From contig JAKOUW010000076.1 in assembly GCA_029782365.1 (NCBI GenBank), positions 62,001-126,000 of the forward strand: 64,000 bases of DNA, in the 5' to 3' direction. The stretch is from Chloroflexota bacterium (GTDB lineage Bacteria; Chloroflexota; Anaerolineae; Anaerolineales; UBA4823). Shown piece by piece: positions 1,575 through 9,779 of the stretch. The notes beneath the pieces were generated by a model. It was not told the DNA's origin and made no database searches. It saw only the letters and a list, made by a program, of their open reading frames with translations. Both the position numbers and the translations under genes were made by a program. The stretch's first letter is position 1, and each line of letters starts with the position of its first letter.

Positions 1575-2501
1575 TCAGGATGACGCGACCAGGTTGATGA
1601 TCCTGGGGGTGATTCCGCTCAAATCGTGCAGTCCCTGGCTGAAAGCTCTGCGAGCTGGCGTTGCACCGATCAATAAGCCTGGCACCGGGTTGGCTGTGTG
1701 GCGGCGGGTTGATAGGTCTTCCAGGTTGCCATGATCAGAGGTGATTAATATCAGTCCGCTGTCATCGTGCCAAGCATCGAAAAGTCCCCCTAGGGTTTGA
1801 TCAAAATTTTCCAATAACTGCACAGCCTGGGGCATATTTTGCTCGTGGCCGGCATAATCCGTCAGCCAATATTCAAAAAAAGCAAAATCATACGCCTGCC
1901 CCAGTTTCGCCAGCTGTTGTCCAGCCTCACGATGGCTGAGAATAGGTATCTGTGGGAAACCGGGTTGGGCGCTCCATCCCTCGCCAGTCAAGTCGGCGGG
2001 AAGCGCTCTACCGGCGCGAATATCTTCGCTTGTCATCAATTGCAGGCCAGCGCTGGTCGCCGCCAAAGGAACAGCAGAGTACATTCTGCGCCGAGATTCG
2101 ATCGCCTGGAAATAGCGCGGTGGATAACCGCTCAGCAAAGCACAGCGTTTGCCAAGCTCGCTCAACTGGTGAAACAAGTTTCCATTTGTCACGAAACGCG
2201 CGACTGCCTCGTTGGGTTTCGGTCCATAGTGGTAGCCAATTTCAGCCGGCACATTGATACCTGTCAGCAACACGGCTTGCCCGGTAGCTGACTGCGGCAG
2301 TCCTGAAATATTGAGACAAGCGTCCAGGCGCAGCAGGGTAGCGCGTTCGTTTTCCAGCGGCAAAGATGGGCTTTCGATCAATTTATGCCCGTTGAGCAAT
2401 GCCTGCAAATTGGGCATCTGAGCTGAGAAAAAGGGGTTCGTCTGAGGATCATCTGACCCCAGCCCTACACCATCCAGAAAGATAAACAGACAACGCATCA
2501 A
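1575..2501 (-). CDS. Alkaline phosphatase/phosphoglycerate mutase-superfamily metalloenzyme
   Basis: The 308-residue protein belongs to the superfamily that includes alkaline phosphatase and cofactor-independent phosphoglycerate mutase. The N-terminal FIFLDGVGLG supplies a metal-binding Asp. ATGQAVLLTG near residue 75 is where the nucleophile region lies. The C-terminal TSDHGNLEDLSTRRHT supplies the D-H and final His ligands. It is much shorter than true iPGM (about 510 residues) and lacks an obvious iPGM insertion domain, so its substrate is unknown. It starts 6 bp after the thioredoxin-like gene at 2508-2984, so the two are probably cotranscribed. The functional link between them is not evident. 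Confidence 0.7.
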   Translation of the reverse strand: MMRCLFIFLDGVGLGSDDPQTNPFFSAQMPNLQALLNGHKLIESPSLPLENERATLLRLDACLNISGLPQSATGQAVLLTGINVPAEIGYHYGPKPNEAVARFVTNGNLFHQLSELGKRCALLSGYPPRYFQAIESRRRMYSAVPLAATSAGLQLMTSEDIRAGRALPADLTGEGWSAQPGFPQIPILSHREAGQQLAKLGQAYDFAFFEYWLTDYAGHEQNMPQAVQLLENFDQTLGGLFDAWHDDSGLILITSDHGNLEDLSTRRHTANPVPGLLIGATPARRAFSQGLHDLSGITPRIINLVASS

Positions 2502-2507
2502 TAAATC

Positions 2508-2984
2508 TCAAGGCACTGAGGCACGAATTTTCGCCTCATCCAGAACGCCGATGCTGCGCAGTATCTCTTTTCCGCTGGCATCGAAGAATATAAAAGTAGG
2601 CGTTCCGAAAACGCTGTATTTGCGAGCGATAAATTGTCCTTGTGCATCCTGGACATTGACGCGAACCACGATTAATTTGCCTTTTAGATCAATTTCGAGC
2701 CTATCCACGATAGGTTTCGCAGCGATGCAGCCCGTTCAATATGGCGATTGCGCTTCAATAAGCACTGGCAAACCCTGGCCAATGGCTGCGTCAGGTGCAC
2801 TACCAGCCGGCAAAGTTGTTTCTACTGGCTTGACAAGCCACCACAAGCCGATTATCAGCACAGTCAGTGCACCCAGCGCCAGCCAACCGTTGCGACGCCG
2901 GCCTGTCAGGAGAACGACTCCCAGGCCGATGGCCAGGACAAATCCGGATAACAGGACAAATGAGTAAATGTTGAAAATGGACAT
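2508..2984 (-). CDS. Membrane-anchored thioredoxin-like protein with in-frame UGA (candidate selenoprotein)
   Basis: One continuous frame of 158 codons is interrupted only by a TGA at 2738-2736. Before it come two hydrophobic segments (about residues 6-28 and 35-52) and then LPVLIEAQSPY. After it come TGCIAAKPIVDRLE and a normal thioredoxin core with the cis-proline motif FGTPTF. The TGA falls exactly where the first Cys of the CxxC active site belongs, giving U-T-G-C. A perfect 6-bp hairpin with a GUG loop follows 21 nt after the UGA (2700-2714), which fits the spacing and loop rules recalled for bacterial SECIS elements. A selenocysteine thioredoxin is therefore the best reading. The alternatives are a Cys-to-stop mutation or a sequencing error. 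No sel genes lie in this window. It heads a two-gene unit with the metalloenzyme at 1575-2501. Confidence 0.65.
2700..2714 (-). promoter_or_regulatory. Candidate bacterial SECIS hairpin
   Basis: In the mRNA the sequence CCTATC-GTG-GATAGG forms a 6-bp perfect stem with a 3-nt loop that starts with G. It begins 21 nt after the UGA of the thioredoxin-like gene, and the loop is 27 nt downstream. Bacterial SECIS models recalled from the literature ask for a loop 16-37 nt after UGA with a G in the first two loop positions. The hairpin lies wholly inside the coding region, as bacterial SECIS elements must. Confidence 0.5.
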
Positions 2985-3141: not shown

Positions 3142-5214
3142 ATGAAAGAATATACCTCTGAGTCCGTTCGTAACATTGCTTTGGCCTCCCACAGCAGCTC
3201 TGGCAAAACCATGCTGGTCGAGGCATTCTTGCACTTCACCGGTGCAACAACCCGCCTGGGGAAGATTGAAGATGGCACGACCGCATCGGATTTTGAAGAT
3301 GAGGAGATCCGCCGTGGCATCTCGCTTTCGACAACCGTGATTCCCATCGAATACAAAAACACCAAAATAAACCTGCTGGACACACCGGGCTACACAGATT
3401 TTATAGGCGAGGTCATATCCTCACTGCGCGTGGCTGATGGTGCAATGATCCTGGTTGACTCTGTAGCCGGTGCGGAGGTGGGTACCGAAATTGCGATGAA
3501 CTATTGTGATCGCTACAACCTGCCTCGTTTCTTGATCGTCAACAAAATGAACAGGGACAATGCTAATTTTCGCAAGGCGCTCGACTCTGTGAAGGAAATT
3601 TCATCAGCCAGTTTCATCCCTGTGCAACTGCCCCTGGGAGAAAAAGCTGAATTCAAGGGTGTGATCGACCTGCTAACGATGAAAGCATACCCGGGTGACG
3701 GAAAAACATCACAGCCGATCCCGGCGCAATTTGCTGACGAAGCCGAAGAGGCCCATACTGCTTTGGTGGAGGCTGCGGCTGAAGGGGAGGACGAGCTGCT
3801 GATGAAGTATCTGGATGGCGAAACCCTGTCTTCTGAAGAAGTGATGCGTGGCCTGCGTAAAGTAATCATGGCGGGAAATTATATTCCTGTCTTTGTCAGC
3901 GCAGGCTCCGCCGAAATAGGCATGGGACCCTTGCTTGACGCGATCGTGGCGTTGATGCCATCGCCTGCTGAGGCACCTGCTTTTAAAGCCATCGGCAAAG
4001 ATGGCGAGGAGACTCTATCTTGCTCGGATAATGGCCCATTGGCCGCATATGTCTGGAAAACAACCGCCGATCCATTTGTGGGAAAAATTACTTACCTTAA
4101 GGTGTATTCAGGCACCTTACATGCCGACACCCGCGTTTGGAACCAAAATAAGTCAGCGGAAGAGCGTCTGGGGGGTTTGAACGTGATGCGTGGCAAAGAG
4201 CAAATCGGCGTCAAAACCGCACATGCCGGTGATCTGGTGGCAGTAGCCAAACTTGGCACAACCGCCACCGGCGACACTTTCTGTGACAAGACCCATCCAT
4301 TGACCTTGCCGATGCCCGAATACCCGAATGCGTTGTTTAGTGTGGCGGTTTTCCCGAAATCTCAGGCAGACTCAGCGAAAATCAGCCCGACCCTCACCCG
4401 GTTGTGTGAAGAAGACCCGACGCTTACCTGGCGCCAGGAGCAAGCCACAGCACAGACAATTTTACAGGGCATGGGTGACCAGCATATTGATGTAGCCATT
4501 CGCAAAGCCGAATCAAAATTCCAAACCAACCTGACATTTGAACTGCCAAAGGTGCCTTACCAAGAAGCCATTACCAAGGAAGGCCAGGCGATGCACCGCC
4601 ATAAGAAACAAACCGGCGGCGCCGGCCAGTTCGCTGAGGTTTGGATGCGTGTGTATCCTCATGCTGACAACGATTACGAATTATCCTGGGATGTGTTTGG
4701 TGGGTCGATTTCCTCCAGCTTTATGCCTGCCATTGACAAAGGCGTGCGCAATGTCTTGAAAGAAGGCGTCATTGCAGGCTATCCGGTGCACAATGTCAAG
4801 GTGTCCATCTACGATGGCAAGGAACACCCAGTGGACTCGAAACCAATTGCGTTTGAAACGGCTGGGCGTGAAGCTTTCAAAGCGGCCTTCAAGGAAGCTA
4901 ATCCGGTGCTGCGCGAACCGATCATGAACGTGCGGATTATCGTCCCCGAATCAAACATGGGCGATATCTTAGGCGATTTAAACACTCGCAGAGCGCGAGT
5001 CCAGGGCATGGACACCGAAAAAGGGCGCTCGGTCGTCACAGCCACAGTGCCGTTGGCTGAAATGCAACGCTACACTACCGACCTGCGCTCTATGACCGGC
5101 GGCAGAGGCATATTTGCGATGGAATTTTCGCATTATGAAGTGGTTCCCTCACACATTGCGGCTGAAATCGTAGCCGCTCGCCAGAAGGAAATTCAACAAG
5201 CAAAAGAGGAATAA
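3142..5214 (+). CDS. Elongation factor G-like translational GTPase (EF-G paralogue)
   Basis: The 690-residue product has the five-domain EF-G architecture. The G1 motif is ASHSSSGKT (residues 15-23), with SSS where classical EF-G has IDA. G3 is DTPGYTDF and G4 is NKMNRD. Domain IV contains HKKQTGGAGQFAEV and the C-terminal domain ends with a MTGGRGIFAMEFSHYE segment. The SSSGKT form of the P-loop is typical of the second EF-G family rather than the str-operon fusA, and no rpsL/rpsG/tuf genes are adjacent. Roles of such paralogues in elongation or ribosome recycling vary, so its job is not assigned here. An AAGGG ribosome site precedes the ATG, and a bidirectional terminator follows. Confidence 0.9.
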   Translation: MKEYTSESVRNIALASHSSSGKTMLVEAFLHFTGATTRLGKIEDGTTASDFEDEEIRRGISLSTTVIPIEYKNTKINLLDTPGYTDFIGEVISSLRVADGAMILVDSVAGAEVGTEIAMNYCDRYNLPRFLIVNKMNRDNANFRKALDSVKEISSASFIPVQLPLGEKAEFKGVIDLLTMKAYPGDGKTSQPIPAQFADEAEEAHTALVEAAAEGEDELLMKYLDGETLSSEEVMRGLRKVIMAGNYIPVFVSAGSAEIGMGPLLDAIVALMPSPAEAPAFKAIGKDGEETLSCSDNGPLAAYVWKTTADPFVGKITYLKVYSGTLHADTRVWNQNKSAEERLGGLNVMRGKEQIGVKTAHAGDLVAVAKLGTTATGDTFCDKTHPLTLPMPEYPNALFSVAVFPKSQADSAKISPTLTRLCEEDPTLTWRQEQATAQTILQGMGDQHIDVAIRKAESKFQTNLTFELPKVPYQEAITKEGQAMHRHKKQTGGAGQFAEVWMRVYPHADNDYELSWDVFGGSISSSFMPAIDKGVRNVLKEGVIAGYPVHNVKVSIYDGKEHPVDSKPIAFETAGREAFKAAFKEANPVLREPIMNVRIIVPESNMGDILGDLNTRRARVQGMDTEKGRSVVTATVPLAEMQRYTTDLRSMTGGRGIFAMEFSHYEVVPSHIAAEIVAARQKEIQQAKEE

Positions 5215-9547: not shown

Positions 9548-9620
9548 GGGCCTGTAGCGCAGTTGGGAGCGCGCTTCAATCGCACTGAAGAGGCCGAGGG
9601 TTCGACTCCCTCCAGGTCCA
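9548..9620 (+). tRNA. tRNA-Ala (CGC)
   Basis: A complete 73-nt cloverleaf: acceptor GGGCCTG/CAGGTCC, D-arm GCGC, anticodon stem CTTCA/TGAAG with loop ATCGCAC, and T-arm GAGGG/CCCTC. The anticodon is CGC. The G3-U70 pair, the main alanine identity element, and the A73 discriminator are both present. The 3' CCA is not encoded. Confidence 0.93.
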
Positions 9621-9664
9621 CTCGACCGGGGATAAGAACGAAACCGGTCCGAAAATTGAATATT

Positions 9665-9737
9665 GGGCCCATAGCGCAGTTGGGAGCGCGTCTCAATGGC
9701 ATTGAGAAGGCCGAGGGTTCGAATCCCTCTGGGTCCA
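9665..9737 (+). tRNA. tRNA-Ala (GGC)
   Basis: A complete 73-nt cloverleaf, nearly the same as the upstream tRNA in the D-arm and T-arm. The anticodon stem is TCTCA/TGAGA with loop ATGGCAT, giving anticodon GGC. The acceptor GGGCCCA/TGGGTCC again has G3-U70 and A73, confirming alanine. CCA is not encoded. It lies 44 bp after the first tRNA and is probably cotranscribed, suggesting a local duplication with anticodon divergence. Confidence 0.93.
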
Positions 9738-9779
9738 CACAATTAAATATAGACTGAACAGCCTTAACAGGAGTAGTAG

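What the first reader, a model, noticed from the sequence alone, without database searches (positions are those of the whole stretch)
2508..2984. Candidate selenoprotein: membrane-anchored thioredoxin with a U-T-G-C active site
Seen directly: a TGA interrupts a thioredoxin-like frame exactly at the first Cys of the CxxC motif. The frame stays intact on both sides, with a TM anchor before and the cis-Pro GTPTF after. A perfect 6-bp hairpin with a G-starting loop lies 27 nt downstream. Known: bacterial selenocysteine often replaces catalytic Cys in thioredoxin-fold proteins and needs a SECIS hairpin just after UGA. Inference: this is a genuine selenoprotein that gene callers would split into two ORFs or call a pseudogene.
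Basis: partly seen in the sequence, partly recalled or inferred. Interest (0 to 1): 0.85.

Follow-up and report, generated by a model that had tools for sequence, protein, structure and literature searches.

The report
Membrane-tethered seleno-thioredoxin hidden by UGA
A bacterial gene that looks cut in two by a stop codon very likely makes a selenium-containing thioredoxin, predicted to be tethered in the membrane; related genomes carry the same stop codon at the same active-site position, and a protein database holds shortened versions that end just before it.

Summary
At 2984-2508 (-) a 158-codon frame has one internal UGA (2738-2736) at the first active-site position of a thioredoxin domain behind two predicted membrane helices. 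The assembly holds selA, selB, selD (itself with UGA) and tRNA-Sec. Of 65 family members in the same order, 56 have UGA and 9 have TGC in that column. A 6-bp hairpin at +22 to +36 forms at least 5 of 6 pairs in 55 of 56 UGA genes and 0 of 9 Cys genes, with compensatory changes and more pairing than synonymous codon choice gives. It recurred in 20 of 20 UxxC-type UGA genes fetched later. The tree needs six Sec/Cys changes. The profile matches 44 of 400 genomes of the phylum. A protein database holds 17 82-aa products among 69 hits. Sec insertion, the side of the membrane and the redox partner are inferred. Seleno-thioredoxins are a known kind; this anchored member reaches no NCBIfam cut-off.

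The parts
2508..2984 (-). Coding frame of 158 codons plus stop with one internal UGA; predicted two-helix-anchored seleno-thioredoxin
   Evidence: Pfam Thioredoxin; model
2907..2978 (-). First predicted membrane helix (residues 3-26)
   Evidence: helix in the model; hydropathy
2835..2897 (-). Second predicted membrane helix (residues 30-50), after the basic loop GRRRNG
   Evidence: helix in the model; hydropathy
2736..2738 (-). In-frame UGA at the nucleophile position (residue 83), predicted selenocysteine
   Evidence: TGA in 56 of 65 family members and TGC in 9
2727..2729 (-). Cys86, the likely resolving Cys of UxxC
   Evidence: invariant in the 30-row alignment; Ser in six UGA genes outside the order
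2700..2714 (-). Hairpin, 6 bp with GUG loop, candidate SECIS apical stem-loop
   Evidence: not the optimum of the isolated 49 nt
2598..2600 (-). cis-Pro codon (Pro129, GTPTF)
   Evidence: invariant
1575..2501 (-). Downstream neighbour: metalloenzyme-superfamily protein (phosphoglycerate-mutase-like), same strand, conserved neighbour in 37 of 65 loci
3142..5214 (+). Divergent upstream neighbour: elongation factor G, conserved neighbour in 33 of 65 loci

Best explanation
This gene very likely encodes a selenoprotein: a thioredoxin-fold protein predicted to be anchored by two membrane helices, in which a UGA codon at the nucleophile position of the active site is likely read as selenocysteine. 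Proposed mechanism: when the ribosome reaches UGA 2738-2736, the first nucleotides after it lie inside the ribosome, the 6-bp hairpin at 2714-2700 is left free, and SelB carrying Sec-tRNA(Sec) would bind the GU of its loop and insert Sec instead of letting translation end. The product would hold a U-T-G-C active site outside the cytoplasm (topology inferred from charge). There the selenolate would attack substrate disulfides and Cys86 would resolve the mixed selenenyl sulfide; electrons would come from the cytoplasm through a CcdA/DsbD-type carrier. Shown: the frame, the conserved UGA, the Cys homologues, the hairpin with covariation, and the machinery genes. Inferred: Sec insertion, topology, partner and substrates.
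For: UGA in the active-site column in 56 of 65 same-order family members, TGC in the other 9. Hairpin with at least 5 of 6 pairs in 55 of 56 UGA genes and 0 of 9 Cys genes, loop G and U at +28/+29 in 56 of 56. 42 cells changed on both sides, 0 of 500 shuffles as high. +25/+33 change together in 8-9 of 9 independent contrasts, p 0.004-0.008. 5.64 pairs observed against 3.87 expected with peptides fixed, maximum of 2000 runs 4.21. Recurrence in 20 of 20 later-fetched UxxC-type UGA genes. selB, tRNA-Sec, selD with UGA, selA in the assembly. selB or tRNA-Sec in 49 of 53 genomes with the UGA form. The own selD UGA is followed by a 7-bp hairpin with a GUA loop. Loop distance of 27 nt is inside the 16-37 nt range printed in PMC10778597 (passage), and a 5/6-bp hairpin with an invariant loop G is described in PMC4607533 (passages).
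Against: The isolated 49-nt stretch folds best otherwise and RNAalifold finds only 3 pairs at -0.31 kcal/mol. The window's genome is a draft with 8.67% contamination, and the selD and tRNA-Sec stretches differ from the window in composition. Four of 53 UGA genomes show neither selB nor tRNA-Sec; three of these have selA over cut-off and G039 only a 27-bit fragment. Presence of machinery does not set UGA genomes apart (p 0.11). The Sec-hairpin link on independent contrasts has only five contrasts (p 0.06) and +24/+34 is not supported. One UGA gene (L123) has 4 of 6 pairs. Charge rule for topology: 32 of 62 for, 15 ties, 15 against. No test of Sec, partner or substrate.
Confidence: 0.9

Rival explanations
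1. Pseudogene or sequencing error: a Cys codon was mutated to TGA or misread, and the gene is dead or the base is wrong.
For: A TGA differs from the Cys codons TGC/TGT by one base, and the assembly is a draft with 8.67% contamination.
Against: The same TGA stands in 56 of 65 same-order members and in 26 genes of the 28 loci fetched later, with open frames on both sides and a hairpin under selection.
Confidence: 0.02
2. The UGA is read by another residue: Cys or Trp through a suppressor tRNA or a changed genetic code, without selenium.
For: Homologues have Cys at this place, so Cys insertion would give a working enzyme.
Against: tRNA-Sec with anticodon tca, selB and selA are present; the gene itself ends with TGA; the conserved hairpin is unneeded for a reassigned codon and is missing from Cys genes. 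Trp at this place was never seen in the 65 rows. No search for suppressor tRNAs was made.
Confidence: 0.04
3. The UGA works as a real stop: the 82-residue two-helix protein is the main product, and reading through is occasional or regulated by selenium.
For: Protein databases hold 82-aa products; UGA decoding competes with termination in general (recalled).
Against: The part after UGA is conserved as a thioredoxin domain with invariant Cys86 and Pro129, and nine orthologues have a plain Cys with continuous frame and the same neighbours.
Confidence: 0.04
4. The protein is a selenoprotein, but works as an oxidase or isomerase partner of a VKOR-type enzyme, or faces the cytoplasm, and is not an outward-facing reductase.
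For: The assembly holds a VKOR homologue as well as one DsbD_TM homologue; the charge rule is not unanimous.
Against: The loop between the helices is more basic than the two flanks together in 32 of 62 members, RRR in this one, which places the domain outside. Sec in UxxC suits a reductant (general redox chemistry, recalled). Neither partner gene is next to this gene; the DsbD_TM gene lies about 47 kb away on the same contig.
Confidence: 0.3

Closest known systems
Bacterial Sec-containing thioredoxin (PF00085, UxxC; Table 1 of PMC13188914; Geobacter, Treponema, Carboxydothermus entries in tables of PMC1794560, passages)
   Same: Thioredoxin domain of PF00085 with UxxC, UGA read with a hairpin just downstream
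   Different: Two N-terminal membrane helices; below the curated cut-off of the thioredoxin model TIGR01068 (41.8 of 96.8 bits). I did not compare it with the cited Sec-thioredoxin sequences one by one.
Solved thioredoxins (1fb0 spinach thioredoxin m; 2cvk Thermus thermophilus thioredoxin)
   Same: Same fold over the domain, TM-score by target length 0.77 and 0.79
   Different: These chains of about 105 residues carry Cys and match the thioredoxin domain; the membrane helices are not covered
DsbD C-terminal domain and the selenoprotein TsoB (NF045694)
   Same: Weak match of the thioredoxin domain (19.7 bits; 20 of 30 members at E 0.01)
   Different: Far under the cut-off of 805 bits; no rhodanese or eight-helix DsbD part in a 158-residue protein

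Membership tests
Bacterial selenoprotein | In-frame UGA with conserved frame on both sides and Cys in homologues at that place | tested here: met
   56 UGA and 9 TGC of 65
Bacterial selenoprotein | SECIS-type hairpin just downstream with a G in the apical loop, 16-37 nt from UGA | tested here: met
   Hairpin at +22 to +36, loop from +28, G and U in 56 of 56, covariation; range from PMC10778597 (passage). Isolated fold differs
Bacterial selenoprotein | selA, selB, selD and tRNA-Sec in the genome | tested here: met
   composition leaves the binning of selD and tRNA-Sec open
Bacterial selenoprotein | Sec present in the product | not testable with these tools
   needs 75Se labelling or mass spectrometry
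Thioredoxin-fold protein (PF00085) | Match over the curated cut-off, UxxC/CxxC motif and cis-Pro | tested here: met
   35 bits, cut-off 23.5; Pro129 invariant; fold
Canonical thioredoxin (TIGR01068 equivalog) | Score over the curated cut-off of 96.8 bits | tested here: not met
   41.8 bits
TsoB selenoprotein (NF045694) | Score over the curated cut-off of 805 bits | tested here: not met
   19.7 bits
Extracytoplasmic membrane-anchored thioredoxin | Membrane helices before the domain | tested here: met
   Two hydrophobic 17-residue windows above 1.6 in 60 of 62 members; helices in the model. Prediction only
Extracytoplasmic membrane-anchored thioredoxin | Domain outside the cytoplasm | tested here: inconclusive
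   Charge rule 32 of 62 for, 15 ties, 15 against

The most novel reading that the evidence does not exclude
Chloroflexota carry an old, phylum-wide family of cell-surface seleno-thioredoxins, with Sec-only (UxxS) paralogues standing in tandem behind UxxC genes, that annotation has cut off at UGA. They run selenium-based thiol chemistry on the outside of the cell and are encoded beside an elongation factor G and often a TPMT-like methyltransferase.
Probability: 0.55. Interest if true: 0.65.

Novelty: new member of a known kind. Interest (0 to 1): 0.5.

Why it matters
It adds a membrane-anchored thioredoxin family to the predicted bacterial selenoproteome, in a phylum that the main text of a 2026 review of that field does not name ('chloroflex' found 0 times). 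Its repeated Sec/Cys exchanges, each with loss of the hairpin, are a natural test of what the SECIS needs. The 82-aa 'hypothetical proteins' in databases that end just before the UGA would need re-annotation.

Tried and rejected
The direct protein search found one relative at E 0.001 among 473 scored candidates; the likely reason is that UGA genes are stored truncated. The profile search then gave 69, of which 17 are 82 aa long (only the 7998 candidates sharing most words were scored). RNAalifold gave a poor consensus and the single-sequence fold does not show the hairpin as optimum, so I relied on comparative pairing. Co-occurrence of machinery with UGA is uninformative here because selB or tRNA-Sec is common in the order (p 0.11). 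Rfam at gathering thresholds found two tRNAs in the window and no SECIS family. The tree test of +24/+34 lacked contrasts. bSECISearch was not available.

Rows chosen and dropped: the 65 members are the 66 rows with E up to 2.3e-14, less G056 (L156, an ordinary thioredoxin). I also fetched G092 and G088 (L155, L157), which proved ordinary thioredoxins, and left out L052, which is the same contig place as L043. The list was cut short, and its weaker rows were not examined one by one. Some members are cut or align only in part (L124, L135, L145, L147, L153). One of 56 UGA rows was left out of A1 because its 48 nt equal another row's. The topology count covers 62 of 65. In one search, six UGA hits without a UxxC motif were handled apart, and one ordinary thioredoxin hit in L184 is not counted as a member.

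Literature: searches; in their listings I saw no title or abstract start that describes this family. Only open-licence PMC papers are held, so this does not show that it is unpublished. Marine members may sit among the 11 thioredoxin selenoproteins counted in PMC1088965 (table passage), and PMC1794560 counts three selenoproteins in Chloroflexi in 2006 (table passage); I compared neither. PMC12013277 has no hit for thioredoxin or Chloroflex in its text.

Full report
Observation. On the minus strand 2984-2508 there is one frame of 158 codons with a single internal TGA at 2738-2736 and a TGA stop at 2510-2508. A table-11 caller sees 82 aa and 66 aa. With the UGA read through, Pfam finds Thioredoxin (35 bits, cut-off 23.5) and Thioredoxin_2 (29.8, cut-off 27). 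The motif is Q-S-P-Y-U-T-G-C, and the cis-Pro motif GTPTF follows. The model has two N-terminal helices (3-26, 30-50) and a thioredoxin fold (mean pLDDT 86.3, pTM 0.73, 44 rows). It matches solved thioredoxins (1fb0, E 2.3e-8, TM 0.77 by target; 2cvk, TM 0.79; by sequence).

Machinery. The window's assembly (6.8 Mb, 261 contigs, listed as 100% complete and 8.67% contaminated) holds selB (293 bits for the best stretch, 320 with its neighbour, cut-off 242; 647-aa ORF), tRNA-Sec (71.5 bits, gathering score 47; ARAGORN agrees), selD (350 bits) with one in-frame TGA in CAGUASK and selA (543 bits). They lie on four contigs other than the window's. Tetranucleotide correlation with the window is 0.86 (selB), 0.90 (selA), 0.77 (selD) and 0.62 (tRNA-Sec), against a minimum of 0.88 and a median of 0.91 for 4-kb chunks of the window itself and 0.75 for another stretch of the window's own contig. 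Composition therefore does not exclude a binning error for selD and tRNA-Sec. The selD UGA is followed by a 7-bp hairpin with a GUA loop, close to the GUG loop here.

Family. One search covered 201 genomes (own plus 200 of the same family or order) with stops read through. I took 65 members (rule in Tried and rejected): 56 have TGA and 9 have TGC in the column of residue 83, and no other codon occurs among the 65. The order is inferred to be Anaerolineales: L052, titled Anaerolineales bacterium, has the match place of G168, and P0007 (Anaerolineales, contig of 76,075 bases) has the contig length of L154. Of 53 genomes with the UGA form, 44 show selB, 43 tRNA-Sec and 49 at least one; of 9 genomes with the Cys form, 6 show both and 3 neither; of the other 139 genomes, 117 show at least one. 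Of the four UGA genomes with neither, three have selA over cut-off and G039 only a 27-bit fragment.

Hairpin. Positions +22 to +27 pair with +31 to +36. At least 5 of 6 pairs form in 55 of 56 UGA genes (37 with six, 18 with five, one with four) and in 0 of 9 Cys genes (1-4 pairs); +28/+29 are G and T in 56 of 56. On 55 distinct rows 93.9% of cells pair (shuffles 86.1%), 42 cells are changed on both sides (0 of 500 shuffles as high), the covariation score is 0.319 against 0.152, and slid versions pair in 57% or less; the count of pairs with a change on both sides, 2, is not above shuffles (288 of 500 as high). The pair +25/+33 is telling: the first base of an Ile or Val codon tracks the silent third base of the Asp/Asn codon two codons on, AT 27, GC 28, GT 1 (one GCC Ala codon included), with 13 and 12 changes on the tree and 8-9 of 9 supported independent contrasts in step, none opposed. 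With peptides fixed and codons drawn at the genes' own usage the mean is 3.87 pairs (maximum of 2000 runs 4.21) against 5.64 observed; for the window's own peptide the chance of six pairs is 0.026. Against this: RNAalifold finds 3 pairs and -0.31 kcal/mol; the isolated 49 nt fold otherwise; +24/+34 has too few contrasts. When the first 6 or 9 nt after UGA are left out, as would be the case inside the ribosome (inference), the hairpin is in the best fold.

Later-fetched loci. A search of 400 genomes drawn from the phylum with the profile matched 44 at E 1e-25 or better, 26 of them outside the order; 39 of the 47 listed matches hold one TGA and 8 none. I fetched 28 further loci, 26 outside the order. 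They hold 20 UxxC-type UGA genes, 18 of them outside the order, each with at least 5 of 6 pairs at the same offset (12 with six), including pairs not seen before: +25/+33 T-A in L171 and +26/+32 C-G in L167 and L169. Five members are Cys: four with 1-3 pairs, and L161 with five pairs but a loop that begins with C. Six more UGA genes have Ser in place of the resolving Cys (UxxS): three in tandem behind a UxxC gene (L175, L176, L177; 4 of 6 pairs) and three in loci with one copy (L178, L183, L185; 6 of 6 pairs).

Evolution and context. A tree of the 65 proteins with residue 83 masked needs six Sec/Cys changes, at least five forced by well-supported branches. On five supported independent contrasts the hairpin goes with Sec in 4.8 on average, none opposed, p 0.06. 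A divergent elongation factor G lies upstream in 33 of 65 loci, the metalloenzyme-superfamily gene downstream in 37 of 65 and a methyltransferase in 28 of 65 (one representative scanned: Methyltransf_25, also TPMT at 39 bits); 9 of 9 Cys loci and 33 of 56 UGA loci keep at least one of the three. The Cys and Sec versions are therefore likely the same gene.

Annotation. The profile search returned 69 proteins, of which 17 are 82 aa long, one being the window's own; the five that I read end at QSEY or QSPY, the residue before UGA. P0052, named thioredoxin family protein by its source, lacks the active-site stretch. For P0001 and P0002 no NCBIfam model reaches its cut-off; for the other 28 rows of A2, one search lists match counts and best E-values only.

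Mechanism. Shown: frame, conserved UGA, Cys homologues, hairpin under selection, machinery genes. Inferred: Sec insertion; export of the domain (mean K/R 2.2 in the loop between the helices, 0.2 before and 1.6 after; loop more basic than both flanks together in 32 of 62, ties 15, less 15); reductase role; a CcdA-type partner (one DsbD_TM match, about 47 kb away on the same contig) rather than VKOR (one match). No call tested partner or substrate.

Comparison and novelty. Sec-thioredoxin (PF00085, UxxC) is an established selenoprotein (PMC13188914, section 7 parts 1 and 2 read; PMC1794560, passages). Sec use in Anaerolineales single cells has been noted for formate dehydrogenase (PMC4959059, passages). 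The present family differs by its predicted two-helix anchor and its lineage. I rate it a new member of a known kind.

Noticed in passing
L175, L176, L177, L178, L183, L185: Six UGA-containing relatives outside the order have UxxS in place of UxxC (Sec without the resolving Cys); in three loci they follow a UxxC copy in tandem.
   Followed up: partly
window 3142-5214 and the matching flanks of 33 of 65 loci: An elongation factor G gene stands divergently beside this selenoprotein gene in many relatives; whether this is more than a shared promoter region is unknown.
   Followed up: partly
downstream flank of 28 of 65 loci, e.g. L139: A methyltransferase gene (one representative also matches TPMT) lies downstream in 28 loci; it was not among the neighbours seen in the window.
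   Followed up: partly
L017 (G000:C30:150842-151777, minus strand): The genome's selD has its own in-frame TGA followed by a 7-bp hairpin with a GUA loop.
   Followed up: partly
P0052 (protein database, source ncbi): A 107-aa entry named thioredoxin family protein from an Anaerolineales genome lacks the stretch around the active site, so it may be a gene model drawn around the UGA.
   Followed up: no
window 9548-9738: Two tRNA-Ala genes in tandem, anticodons cgc and ggc as given by ARAGORN.
   Followed up: no
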